Source of the DNA: an uncultured Bacteroidales bacterium
GTDB taxonomy: Bacteria; Bacteroidota; Bacteroidia; Bacteroidales; Paludibacteraceae
Direction of reading: 5' to 3'
Assembly: GCA_946616535.1 (NCBI GenBank)
Contig: CAMOJA010000007.1
Coordinates: forward strand, 1-64,000
Length of the DNA: 64,000 nt
The stretch's first letter is position 1. The number at the start of each line of letters is the position of its first letter. Shown here one piece after another: positions 11,747 to 62,273 of this stretch. The notes below the pieces were generated by a model. The model had not been told where the DNA came from, made no database searches, and saw nothing but the letters and a program-made list of their open reading frames with translations. Made by a program: the position numbers and the translations under genes.

Positions 11747-12809
11747 TTGCTTCTTTTAATTTACCACTTTCCACTTTACGGTATTTCTTCTGGCGTTGTT
11801 CCCATCGTTCACGCGCATATTGCTGCATATCGATGACGGTATCGTTCTCGTCGATGATCTCGAGTCCGAAGATGGTCTCGATGATATCCTCGAGGGTGAG
11901 GATACCGACAAACATGCCGTATTCATCGATGATTTGGGCGATCTGGCTCTTCTGCTTGAGCATGGAGTCGAAAATGACGCCGAGGGTGAGGTCCTGGTCG
12001 AAAGCCGGCAGGGAACGCTTGATACCGCCGAGGGTCTTGCGGAAATGATCTTCTGTCAGTTCCTCGAGTGCATCGTTTCGCAGCACATAGCCGGTGATGT
12101 ACTCGGGTGCCTCGGGTTTATAGAGCGGAATACGCGAGAAATGGTCGTATTCATCGTTGTCGTAGTAAGCGCGGAGGGTCATGTTCTCCGGTGCGGTCTT
12201 GGCTACTACACGCGGCGTCATCACATCATAGGCATGGATGGAGTCGAGACGCATGAGGTTAGAGAAGATCTTATTCTCGTCCTCGTCGACGACACCTTCT
12301 TCTTCACCCACATTGACCATCGCCAGCACTTCTTCGCGGCTGACGGAGGGGTCGTCTTCGTTATTAGGAAAGGCCTTGGTGATCAATTCCACCAGTATCA
12401 CGAACGGATATAATATAAAGATGAGCGCGCGTATGATGCGCGCGGAAGGACCCATGAGTTGGCGCCAATAGGTAGTACCGATGACCTTGGGGATGATCTC
12501 CGAGAAGACGAGGATGAGGAGGGTGGTGATGGCCGAAACGATCCCGACCCACATACCGCCGAACTGGGCAGCCTGGGCACCCACGCCGGCTGCACCCACC
12601 GTATTCGCGATGGTGTTGAGCGAGAGGATAGCGGCTAAAGGACGACCGGTGTCCTCCTTATACTGGCTCATGAGCTTCGCGGGCGCATAGCCTTCCTCTT
12701 CGCGGAGATTAATATAACTGAGCGAGGTGGACATCAGTACCGACTCCAGAATGGAGCAGAGGAAACTGATGCTCATCGCGCCGAATAAAAACAAAAGCAG
12801 TAGTCCCAT
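11697..12809 (-). CDS. CNNM/CBS-domain membrane protein (GldE/HlyC-CorC family)
   Basis: 370 residues. N-terminal DUF21/CNNM membrane domain with three or four transmembrane helices (about 1-150), then two CBS domains (about 190-315, VMTPRVV and QIAQIIDEYGMFVGILTLED). The C-terminal CorC/HlyC domain present in longer relatives is missing. Members are linked to Mg2+/Co2+ transport; in flavobacteria a related gene is gldE. The protein ends in a charged tail that contains a heptamer repeat array (KVESGKLK, 11759-11779), and its 3' end overlaps smpB by 50 bp. It follows metG by 13 bp on the same strand. Confidence 0.85.
   Translation of the reverse strand: MGLLLLFLFGAMSISFLCSILESVLMSTSLSYINLREEEGYAPAKLMSQYKEDTGRPLAAILSLNTIANTVGAAGVGAQAAQFGGMWVGIVSAITTLLILVFSEIIPKVIGTTYWRQLMGPSARIIRALIFILYPFVILVELITKAFPNNEDDPSVSREEVLAMVNVGEEEGVVDEDENKIFSNLMRLDSIHAYDVMTPRVVAKTAPENMTLRAYYDNDEYDHFSRIPLYKPEAPEYITGYVLRNDALEELTEDHFRKTLGGIKRSLPAFDQDLTLGVIFDSMLKQKSQIAQIIDEYGMFVGILTLEDIIETIFGLEIIDENDTVIDMQQYARERWEQRQKKYRKVESGKLKEASESEERHTDPEQEGEV
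11759..11779. repeat. Heptamer array, 3 units, inside the CNNM/CBS gene
   Basis: ATTTACC-ACTTTCC-ACTTTAC, period 7, in frame in the C-terminal tail. Confidence 0.5.
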
Positions 12810-12822
12810 ATAGTCCTTTCTT

Positions 12823-14925
12823 TTATCCTACTTGGCATCCGTTCTTCACGGGTGCAGAGACGGTAGTGACGACCAGTTTGCCGTCGGCATCTACCGCGGA
12901 GAGAATCATACCCTGACTCTCGATACCCATCATCTTACGCGGCGGGAAATTGGCGATGAACAGCACCTGTTTGCCTACCAGTACGGACGGGTCCGGATAA
13001 GACTGCGCAATACCCGATAAAATCGTACGTCCGCCCATGCCATCGTCCAACTTGAACTGCAGCAGACGCTCCGATTTCTTGACGGGCGTACACTCCAGGA
13101 CGGTAGCGACACGGATGTCATTTTTCTCGAATTCATCGAAAGAATTCGGCTCTTTGACCGGTTCGGGTCGCCAGTTCTTGAGTGCCTCGGCTTGTGCTGC
13201 GGCTTCGTTCTCGGCCTTGATGCGGGCGAGCTTGTCGAGTTGCGCCTGAATAGCACTGTCTTCGATCTTCTCAAAGAGCAGGCTGACTTCGCCGAGTGTA
13301 TCGTTTGCTTTCAGCATATCGATGCGGCCGAGATCTTCCCAGGAAGGGGAAACCCCACCCGACCTCCCCTCAAGGGAGGAGGAAAGACCAAGCATGGTCT
13401 TTAGTTTCTCGGACGAGAAGGGCAGGAACGGCTCGAAAGCAATCGCGAGGTTAGCGGCGATCTGCAGCGCGAGATGGAGCACGGTAGCCGTGCGAGCCAT
13501 ATCCGTCTTGGCGAGTTTCCAAGGCTCGGTATCGGCGAGGTATTTATTACCGATGCGGGCGAGGTTCATCGCCTCTTTCTGCGCCTCGCGGAAACGGAAG
13601 ACATCGAGTAAACTCTCGATTTGTGATTTGTAATTTGTGATTTGTGATATGACTTCTTTGTCGTAGTCGGTGAGTTCGCCGCATGCGGGGATACGTCCTT
13701 CGAAATACTTGGAGGTGAGCACGAGGGCACGGTTGACGAAGTTGCCGTAGATAGCCACGAGTTCGTTGTTGTTACGCGCCTGGAAGTCCGCCCAAGTGAA
13801 GTCGTTATCCTTGGTCTCCGGTGCATTGGCGGTAAGCACATAGCGCAGCACGTCCTGTTTGCCGGGGAAATCATCGAGGTATTCGTTGAGCCAAACCGCC
13901 CAGTTGCGGGAAGTAGAGATCTTATCGCCCTCGAGGTTGAGGAACTCATTCGCCGGCACGTTATCGGGCAGGTTATAACCCTGCGCCTTGAGCATAACGG
14001 GGAAGACGATGCAATGGAAAACGATGTTATCTTTTCCGATGAAATGGATCATTCGGGTGTCTTCCTGCTTCCACCATTTCTCCCAGTTGCCGAATTTATC
14101 GGGCTCGTTTTGGCAGAGCTCTTTTGTATTGGAGATGTAGCCGATGGGGGCATCAAACCATACGTAGAGCACTTTGCCCTCAGCACCCTCTACGGGCACG
14201 GGGATACCCCAGTCGAGGTCACGGGTGACGGCACGGGGTTTGAGTCCGCTATCGAGCCAACTCTTACACTGGCCATAGACGTTGGAACGCCATTCCTTAT
14301 GGTTATTGAGGATCCAGTCCTCGAGCCAGGTCTGGTACTGATCGAGCGGGAGATACCAGTGTTTGGTCTCCTTCTTGGTGAGGGCATTGCCGGTCTCGGC
14401 ATTATAGGGGTTGATCAGTTCATCGGGCGAGAGGGTAGCGCCGCATTTCTCGCACTGGTCGCCATAGGCGCCCAGCGAATGGCAGCGCGGACACTCCCCG
14501 CGGATATTGCGGTCGGTCAGGAAATGACCCGTCTCGGGATCATAGAACTGCTCGGAGGTCTCTTCAATAAACTGGCCGGCATCATACATCTTGCGGAAAT
14601 AGTCGGCCGCAAACTGATGATGGATCGCCGAGGTAGTACGGGAATAGATATCGAAGGAGATACCGAATTGCTCAAAGGAGCGTTTGATAAGCGAGTGATA
14701 GCGGTCCACCACCTCTTGGGTCGTGATTCCTTCTTTGCGTGCGCGTATGGTAACGGGCACACCGTGCTCATCGCTACCGCAGACAAACATCGTCTCCTTG
14801 CCTTTGAGGCGCAGATAGCGCGCGTAGATATCCGCCGGAACATAGACGCCGGCAAGGTGTCCGATATGGACCGGACCATTCGCATAAGGCAGGGCTGCTG
14901 TGATTAAAGTGCGATTATATGCCAT
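12823..14925 (-). CDS. metG: Methionyl-tRNA synthetase
   Basis: 700 residues. Class I synthetase: HIGH box (PYANGPVHIGHLAG, about 14-27), zinc knuckle (CPRCHSLGAYGDQCEKC, about 144-160), KMSKS-type loop as KISTS (about 336-340), anticodon domain, and a C-terminal tRNA-binding OB fold (about 590-700, FEKNDIRVATVLECTPVKK). Two repeat elements sit in frame in the anticodon domain: a heptamer array (ISQITNYKSQI, 13621-13648) and a hairpin element (SLEGRSGGVSPSW, 13345-13385). Both fall in linker positions, and the catalytic motifs are intact. Confidence 0.95.
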   Translation of the reverse strand: MAYNRTLITAALPYANGPVHIGHLAGVYVPADIYARYLRLKGKETMFVCGSDEHGVPVTIRARKEGITTQEVVDRYHSLIKRSFEQFGISFDIYSRTTSAIHHQFAADYFRKMYDAGQFIEETSEQFYDPETGHFLTDRNIRGECPRCHSLGAYGDQCEKCGATLSPDELINPYNAETGNALTKKETKHWYLPLDQYQTWLEDWILNNHKEWRSNVYGQCKSWLDSGLKPRAVTRDLDWGIPVPVEGAEGKVLYVWFDAPIGYISNTKELCQNEPDKFGNWEKWWKQEDTRMIHFIGKDNIVFHCIVFPVMLKAQGYNLPDNVPANEFLNLEGDKISTSRNWAVWLNEYLDDFPGKQDVLRYVLTANAPETKDNDFTWADFQARNNNELVAIYGNFVNRALVLTSKYFEGRIPACGELTDYDKEVISQITNYKSQIESLLDVFRFREAQKEAMNLARIGNKYLADTEPWKLAKTDMARTATVLHLALQIAANLAIAFEPFLPFSSEKLKTMLGLSSSLEGRSGGVSPSWEDLGRIDMLKANDTLGEVSLLFEKIEDSAIQAQLDKLARIKAENEAAAQAEALKNWRPEPVKEPNSFDEFEKNDIRVATVLECTPVKKSERLLQFKLDDGMGGRTILSGIAQSYPDPSVLVGKQVLFIANFPPRKMMGIESQGMILSAVDADGKLVVTTVSAPVKNGCQVG
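13345..13385 (-). repeat. In-frame palindromic element, copy 2 (in metG)
   Basis: Stem CCTCCC-CTCAA-GGGAGG with C-rich flank; the coding strand reads SLEGRSGGV. Same frame and orientation as the copy at 7674-7710. Confidence 0.75.
13621..13648. repeat. Heptamer array, 4 units, inside metG
   Basis: TTGTGAT-TTGTAAT-TTGTGAT-TTGTGAT, period 7, in frame. Confidence 0.75.
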
Positions 14926-62201: not shown

Positions 62202-62203
62202 AA

Positions 62204-62273
62204 ATTACTAATTACCATTTACCAATTACCATTTACCAATTACCAATTACCATTTGCCATCTACCAATTACTC
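62204..62273. repeat. Heptamer array, 10 units, between lpxA and lpxC
   Basis: Ten contiguous 7-mers of the form (A/T)TTACCA (62204-62273); the last unit contains the lpxC stop codon. It fills the whole intergenic gap. Confidence 0.93.

What the first reader, a model, noticed from the sequence alone, without database searches (positions are those of the whole stretch)
11759..62273. A genome-wide family of degenerate 7-nt repeat arrays, each locus with its own unit
Thirteen arrays of 3-10 units all have period exactly 7 although the units differ: (A/T)TTACCA, AATTTCA, TTTTGAT, AATTGAC, TGATGGG, CGAAAGT, AGTGGAG, GAGTCAA, TTGTGAT, TGTAACC, TGGACAA and others (positions in the features). They lie between genes or in frame inside genes. 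They are absent from the 29.3-37 kb island and the 1-7 kb accessory block. Heptameric STRR arrays are known from cyanobacteria; I know of no described counterpart in Bacteroidales. The shared period with different units suggests a common generating mechanism rather than copying of one sequence.
Basis: partly seen in the sequence, partly recalled or inferred. Interest (0 to 1): 0.88.

Follow-up and report, generated by a model that had tools for sequence, protein, structure and literature searches.

The report
Seven-base repeats that keep re-arising
Some rumen Bacteroidales genomes are peppered with short imprecise repeats whose unit is usually seven bases long; they seem to arise repeatedly between and inside ordinary genes in some species and hardly at all in close relatives, pointing to a lineage-specific mutation habit rather than one spreading element.

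Summary
In the window 7 arrays pass a strict period-7 test, against none at periods 4-6, 8-11 and 13 and one at 12. In 1.03 Mb from relatives there are 124 period-7 arrays, 45 period-11 and 0 period-10; in 277 kb from 16 other Bacteroidales families, 2. Units are not arbitrary: they share a loose grammar, about KKGWRAN on one strand. Against a genome of 98% identity, 5 of 11 window arrays differ: three absent, one with another heptamer, one two units longer. The same sites carry different heptamers in other species. Adjacent units are most alike; 10 of 16 length differences between close relatives are multiples of 7. Reverse transcriptase, Y-family polymerase, MutS or PolA-exonuclease loss and block copying did not explain them. 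Best reading: slippage in 7-base steps, frequent in some lineages, filtered by selection to tolerant sites. Heptanucleotide repeats are known; new here are density, on/off patchiness between sister species, a shared grammar, and in-frame arrays in genes such as metG.

The parts
13618..13648 (.). Array GATTTGT x4.4, inside metG (12823-14925, - strand), in frame; replaces an equal-length segment found in G001 and five other species
26841..26871 (.). Array CTCTTGA x4.4, encodes the extreme N-terminus of a PotC-like permease (25947-26876, - strand); absent in G001 (window 45 nt longer); which state is older is not known
37283..37318 (.). Array AGTGGAG x5, in frame in the segment before the DHO_dh domain of a PreA-like protein (37032-38516, + strand); same site carries other heptamers in two species (L140, L138) and none in a third (L141)
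40502..40538 (.). Array TTTTGAT x5.4, spacer between the RND adaptor gene and the RND pump gene; G001 has a different heptamer (TTTAGTG) here
46466..46496 (.). Array TGATGGG x4, in frame in a gene (46086-47111, - strand) with only a weak match to a glycosyltransferase family
47083..47111 (.). Degenerate array of AATTGAC units in the spacer between a radical-SAM gene and the next gene; absent in G001
47655..47686 (.). Array AGTCGAA x4.5, in frame in a radical-SAM gene (47112-47879, - strand); other species carry other arrays or none here
52142..52172 (.). Array with a 14-base unit made of two heptamers; encodes part of the N-terminal, signal-like segment of a protein (50650-52227, - strand) with weak LptA-family match
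52184..52206 (.). Array TGTAACC x3.3, start of the same gene
61448..61492 (.). Array AATTTCA/AAATATC, spacer between lpxA and a class I Glu/Gln-type tRNA synthetase gene (59726-61447, - strand)
62203..62271 (.). Array (A/T)TTACCA x10, spacer between lpxC (62268-63215, - strand) and lpxA (61485-62201, - strand); two units longer than in G001

Best explanation
The arrays are products of a recurrent mutational process: local tandem duplication in steps of seven bases, most simply strand slippage during DNA synthesis, with the step length set by the replication machinery and not by the unit. Arrays start where sequence is little constrained (gene spacers, protein ends, linkers, signal peptides), grow unit by unit, drift apart by point mutation and are lost again. 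Selection only filters them, for example for frame and for no stop codons inside genes. The rate differs greatly between sister species, so some lineage-level modifier of replication or repair should exist. Shown: period, turnover, local similarity of units, 7-step length differences, patchiness. Inferred: slippage itself, the order of events, and the modifier.
For: Period 7 dominates: exact runs of 10 or more, 113 observed against 1.7 expected, versus 1 against 1.7 at period 10. In 79 arrays of 35 bases or more, adjacent units are more alike than shuffled ones (0.881 vs 0.846, 0 of 200 shuffles reach it) and similarity falls with distance. Of 37 array-array pairs between relatives with flanks 90% alike or more (pairs can be counted from both sides), 21 do not differ in length and 10 of the other 16 differ by multiples of 7; L059 and L072 differ by exactly six units at one site. 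Same site, different heptamers across species. Of 39 coding arrays with array-less orthologues, 37 net length differences are multiples of 3, and coding arrays carry fewer stops on the sense strand (0.67 vs 1.91 per 21 nt).
Against: Differences from array-less orthologues are not multiples of 7 in 23 of 33 intergenic cases (medians over diverged relatives, and several cases are the same site), nor against G001 in two of three cases (+45, +18; the third is 0), so starts need another event besides 7-base slippage. Twelve of 39 coding arrays bring no gain in length (3 zero, 9 shorter); metG and a gene in L072 show replacement at equal length, which simple slippage does not predict. The unit grammar is unexplained by plain slippage. 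Period 11 is also in excess, and period 8 in some species.
Confidence: 0.55

Rival explanations
1. Arrays spread by copying: a stretch of array from one locus is pasted into another by recombination or capture of DNA fragments.
For: Same-class units recur within a genome more than between genomes (178 of 1950 vs 89 of 8346 pairs; 0 of 2000 permutations reach it; G124 gives 127 of the 178). The 40502 array shares 26-27 exact bases, including a variant unit, with another locus of G001 (L001 from 594). Sharing of non-periodic words in G177, and of the shorter words in G173, lies at or near the top of the shuffles.
Against: No such excess in G001, G124 or G054 (five genomes tested). The 40502 match is not firm: 3 of 300 column shuffles but 61 of 300 unit shuffles reach it; metG 154 and 125 of 300. 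Only about a fifth of G001 was examined.
Confidence: 0.15
2. A dedicated polymerase writes the arrays: a telomerase-like reverse transcriptase such as DRT10, or an error-prone Y-family polymerase.
For: DRT10 makes tandem-repeat DNA from a short RNA template (PMC12632851, abstract and passages). In genus g31 two of three high genomes carry a high-scoring Y-family type and six low ones a lower-scoring type; high G054 has the former too. In g1 a third type goes weakly with higher counts (p=0.04, uncorrected, kinship ignored).
Against: No RVT_1 match in high genomes G173, G212, G220, G205 and G085 (94-98% complete), yet matches in low ones such as G055, G138, G084. No Y-family match in high genomes G205 (96%), G061 (94%), G117 (89%); the high-scoring type is also in G203 with only 10 matches. 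A single templated enzyme would hardly give 79 unit classes.
Confidence: 0.08
3. The arrays are selected for a function, as contingency (phase-variation) loci or as spacers tuning translation of the next gene.
For: Copy number differs between strains, about half lie between co-directional genes (89 of 186 classified), and unit number would shift frame or spacing.
Against: They sit in housekeeping genes (metG, lpxC-lpxA spacer) and are missing at the same site in relatives. Degenerate units should reduce switching. Preference for surface genes was not tested.
Confidence: 0.12
4. Arrays reached the window strain by allelic recombination with diverged strains, so presence/absence reflects exchange rather than rapid birth.
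For: Extra substitutions cluster beside the 13618, 26841 and 40502 arrays.
Against: The 47083 array has clean flanks over the 45 bases shown each side; five other species share the array-less metG form. This moves the birth elsewhere but does not explain it.
Confidence: 0.12

Closest known systems
Heptanucleotide long simple sequence repeats in bacterial genomes (Mrazek et al. 2007; not read, known through PMC4679880 section 3 and passages of PMC4692102)
   Same: Unit length 7 is reported as the commonest long class in most genomes; polymerase slippage with a 7-base contact length was proposed
   Different: Here the arrays are degenerate, dense (about 11 per 100 kb in G001), nearly half in genes, and high or near zero between sister species
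Cyanobacterial heptamer repeats, e.g. Nostoc trnL intron P6b Class I TDNGATT and Class II NNTGAGT (PMC4476775, passages)
   Same: Seven-base units, one class replaced by another at the same site, 7- and 14-base length changes; 22 of 178 units here fit TDNGATT vs 5.9 expected
   Different: Counted once per class the TDNGATT excess is weaker (8 of 79 vs 2.6, null maximum 9); NNTGAGT fits none; no intron or RNA stem here; arrays spread over genes and spacers
TAACTGA repeats of Beggiatoaceae, some Cyanobacteria and Bacteroidetes (PMC4679880)
   Same: Heptamer arrays near genes, including in Paludibacter and other Bacteroidetes, some with other heptamers beside them
   Different: One fixed unit there; none of 178 consensus units here is that unit
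GGGAATC / GGGGA(C/T)T repeats of Xanthomonas and Nostoc (PMC4692102, passages)
   Same: Heptamer arrays between the same genes with length and sequence variation between relatives
   Different: G-rich quadruplex units; not enriched here

Membership tests
Heptanucleotide long simple sequence repeats | Period 7 over-represented against other periods and chance | tested here: met
Heptanucleotide long simple sequence repeats | Units diverse rather than one sequence | tested here: met
   79 classes among 178 arrays
Heptanucleotide long simple sequence repeats | Generated by replication slippage | tested here: inconclusive
   Unit similarity and 7-step differences fit; lengths against array-less relatives and replacements do not fit simply
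Nostoc P6b / STRR heptamers | Units TDNGATT or NNTGAGT | tested here: inconclusive
   TDNGATT 22 of 178 (null 5.9) but 8 of 79 classes (null 2.6, maximum 9); NNTGAGT 0 of 178
Nostoc P6b / STRR heptamers | Repeats pair to form an RNA stem in an intron | not tested
   Rfam finds only a tRNA in the window; folding of arrays not examined
TAACTGA repeats | Unit TAACTGA | tested here: not met
   0 of 178
Xanthomonas/Nostoc G-rich heptamers | Unit GGGANTN or GGGGAYT | tested here: not met
   1 and 0 of 178 (nulls 2.1 and 0.2)
Phase-variation contingency loci | Copy-number change in whole units between strains | tested here: met
   14-base difference at 62203
Phase-variation contingency loci | Reversible on/off switching of surface genes | not testable with these tools
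   Several window arrays sit in housekeeping genes; switching needs cultures
DRT10 / telomerase-like repeat synthesis | Reverse transcriptase present in array-rich genomes | tested here: not met
   No RVT_1 match in five array-rich genomes of 94-98% completeness

The most novel reading that the evidence does not exclude
Some lineages carry a switchable activity, distinct from ordinary slippage, that writes seven-base arrays obeying a sequence grammar and can overwrite existing DNA (as in metG, with no length change); it is gained and lost between sister species across Bacteroidota, and the partly similar grammar in Nostoc points to the same activity there.
Probability: 0.2. Interest if true: 0.88.

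Novelty: new variant of a known kind. Interest (0 to 1): 0.62.

Why it matters
Why bacterial repeats prefer a seven-base unit has been noted and, in the papers seen here, only guessed at. Here high and near-zero species sit side by side in one genus (G124 with 313 pattern matches; G055, G138 and G156 with none), so the cause can be sought by comparing genomes. If arrays keep arising inside housekeeping genes, this is a strong and little-noticed source of new spacer and protein sequence.

Tried and rejected
Rejected or unsupported: reverse transcriptase, PolA 5'-exonuclease loss (34 of 34 have it), MutS loss (a match in 34 of 34, 33 over the cut-off), Y-family polymerase as a requirement, block copying as the general rule. 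Self-complementarity of units gave nothing (0.34 vs 0.38 expected); a strand without C or without G is only mildly favoured (114 of 178 units vs 89 expected). Absence from the island is not significant. The backward control that the genome search prints is often as high as the pattern itself and is no clean null, because array DNA can also match the reversed pattern; I rely on the period 5, 6, 8 and 9 analogues on local sequence (0 in 1.03 Mb against 27 for period 7; but 1 at period 8 and 1 at 9 in G003 and 1 at 9 in G009, where the period-7 pattern itself gave 0).

Limits: gene calls come from a simple codon-score script. Dropped rows: 19 of 97 loci as near-duplicates; low-complexity hits; arrays partly overlapping a gene; orthologues with a weak period-7 score of 7-9. 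One of the 20 loci reads all N. Pattern counts are overlapping matches, several per array. 'High' (60 or more) was counted by eye: 19 of 200 and 7 of 392. A single 20-kb stretch is a weak measure: G085 has none in its stretch yet 200 pattern matches. Two loci (L040, L097) come from the same genome record set.

Full report
What is there. A scan for self-similarity at fixed lag finds seven strong period-7 arrays in the window and none at periods 4-6, 8-11 or 13 (one at 12); an order-3 Markov model expects none. A looser threshold gives ten, and TRF lists the same places.

How general. Loci from named relatives (titles mostly uncultured Bacteroidales or Paludibacteraceae, many from rumen) give 124 period-7 arrays in 1.03 Mb after removing near-duplicates, against 45 at period 11, 14 at 8, 0 at 10 and 1 at 13. 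Exact-run counts agree. The nearest genome, G001, has 44 in 400 kb. In 277 kb from 16 other Bacteroidales families there are two, and in 50 kb of E. coli no array at any period tested. Three other genus members, 100 kb each, have only 2-3. In 20 other genera of the family, one 20-kb stretch each, 15 have none, while G054 has 7, G081 5, G068 2, G063 and G065 1; a single stretch is a weak measure, since G085 has none there but many pattern matches elsewhere.

Patchiness. The unit grammar (below), written as a three-unit pattern, was counted in 200 genomes of the family (overlapping matches). Nineteen have 60 or more. High and low species share genera: g31 has G124 313, G085 200 and G171 76 against G055, G138 and G156 at 0; g24 has G180 130 and G081 98 against G187, G199 and G137 at 0; g1 ranges from 334 (G173) to 0 (G012, G218). 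In 392 genomes across the phylum, seven reach 60 (G001, G535, G354, G527, G537, G564, G572). The same pattern written with periods 5, 6, 8 or 9 matches nothing in 1.03 Mb, where period 7 matches 27 times.

Units. Consensus units of 178 arrays fall into 79 rotation-and-strand classes. A model with hidden rotation and strand fits them far better than letter-shuffled units (log-likelihood -1497 against -1639, standard deviation 3), with consensus KKGWRAN. Seventy of 178 fit KKGWRAN exactly against 17.4 expected, though that motif was derived from these units. Twenty-two fit the Nostoc Class I motif TDNGATT against 5.9 expected (8 of 79 when each class counts once, against 2.6 with null maximum 9), and none fits Class II (motifs from PMC4476775, passages). 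Units are shared more within genomes than between them, largely because of G124.

Turnover. Across 47 kb aligned to G001 (2% mismatches), five of eleven arrays differ: 13618, 26841 and 47083 are absent from G001, 40502 has another heptamer there, and 62203 differs by two units. The 13618 array lies in metG; G001 and five other species keep a conserved segment of the same length instead. At the lpxC-lpxA spacer of 65 loci, 27 fall in the shortest class and 30 are long; 13 of these 30 score 10 or more at period 7, with differing units, and others hold mixed 7- and 8-base repeats or none. The sites in the PreA-like, radical-SAM and LptA-like genes and the RND spacer behave alike.

Growth. Neighbouring units are more alike than distant ones. 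Between relatives with flanks 90% alike or more, 21 of 37 array pairs have equal length and 10 of the other 16 differ by multiples of 7; at one site L059 and L072 differ by six whole units, the direction not being shown. Against array-less orthologues, 30 of 33 intergenic arrays add length, often about their own; among coding arrays 27 of 39 add length (median of all 39 is 15), 3 add none and 9 are shorter, and 37 of 39 differences are multiples of 3. But 23 of 33 intergenic differences are not multiples of 7. Starts therefore involve something beyond 7-base steps.

Position. Of 186 classified period-7 arrays (56 genus loci, 20 G001 stretches and 17 stretches of four other species), 87 are coding, 89 lie between co-directional genes, 6 between divergent and 4 between convergent genes, in genomes about 88-90% coding. 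Coding arrays carry fewer stops on the sense strand. Period-11 arrays differ: 57 of 63 are intergenic.

Cause. Copying between loci is not supported in three of five genomes and only weakly hinted in two, although one pair is suggestive. Reverse transcriptase, PolA 5'-exonuclease, MutS1 and Y-family polymerases do not separate high from low genomes consistently. Slippage with a 7-base step, proposed by Mrazek and colleagues as reported in PMC4679880 and PMC4692102, remains the simplest account, with an unknown modifier.

Novelty. Searches for this in print: of which only the top rows were listed. The rows seen include the TAACTGA paper (which covers five Bacteroidetes), the Xanthomonas/Nostoc paper and Nostoc trnL papers, and no title on dense heptamer arrays in Bacteroidales. 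The library is open-access only, so this is weak evidence of absence.

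Noticed in passing
L044, L046, L047, L055, L062, L065, L072, L079, L085, L087, L096 at about 11.6-11.8 kb: Period-11 arrays with different units (GTGATTAACAC, CCTAGGTGATA, TATTGGGTGAT and others) in eleven loci, by distance and by L005/L008 in the lpxA-to-tRNA-synthetase spacer; period-11 arrays are mostly intergenic (57 of 63) and may be a separate, possibly regulatory class.
   Followed up: partly
window 29350-29408, 36977-37045, 54384-54447: Stretches that hit many places in six genus genomes; their TTTG...TAnnTTTGCA layout looks like strong Bacteroidetes promoters (motif recalled).
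   Followed up: partly
L043 5832, L084 55, L037 13288: A 16-base repeat unit (GGTCTGTCAGCGAAGC and variants) in the genus; related sequence also occupies the radical-SAM site in L129 and L130.
   Followed up: no
window 29408: A 49-base insertion relative to G001, just upstream of the tRNA-Met at 29512.
   Followed up: no
window 13343-13372: Two short insertions (16 and 11 bases) in metG relative to G001, about 250 bases from the array.
   Followed up: no
G207 and G003 stretches (L251-L254, L219-L223): Period-8 arrays outnumber period-7 in these two species (10 vs 9; 7 vs 3), so the preferred step may shift between species.
   Followed up: no
G218:C8 and G231:C38: MutS matches of two array-poor genomes are split by about 22 extra residues in an open frame.
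   Followed up: no
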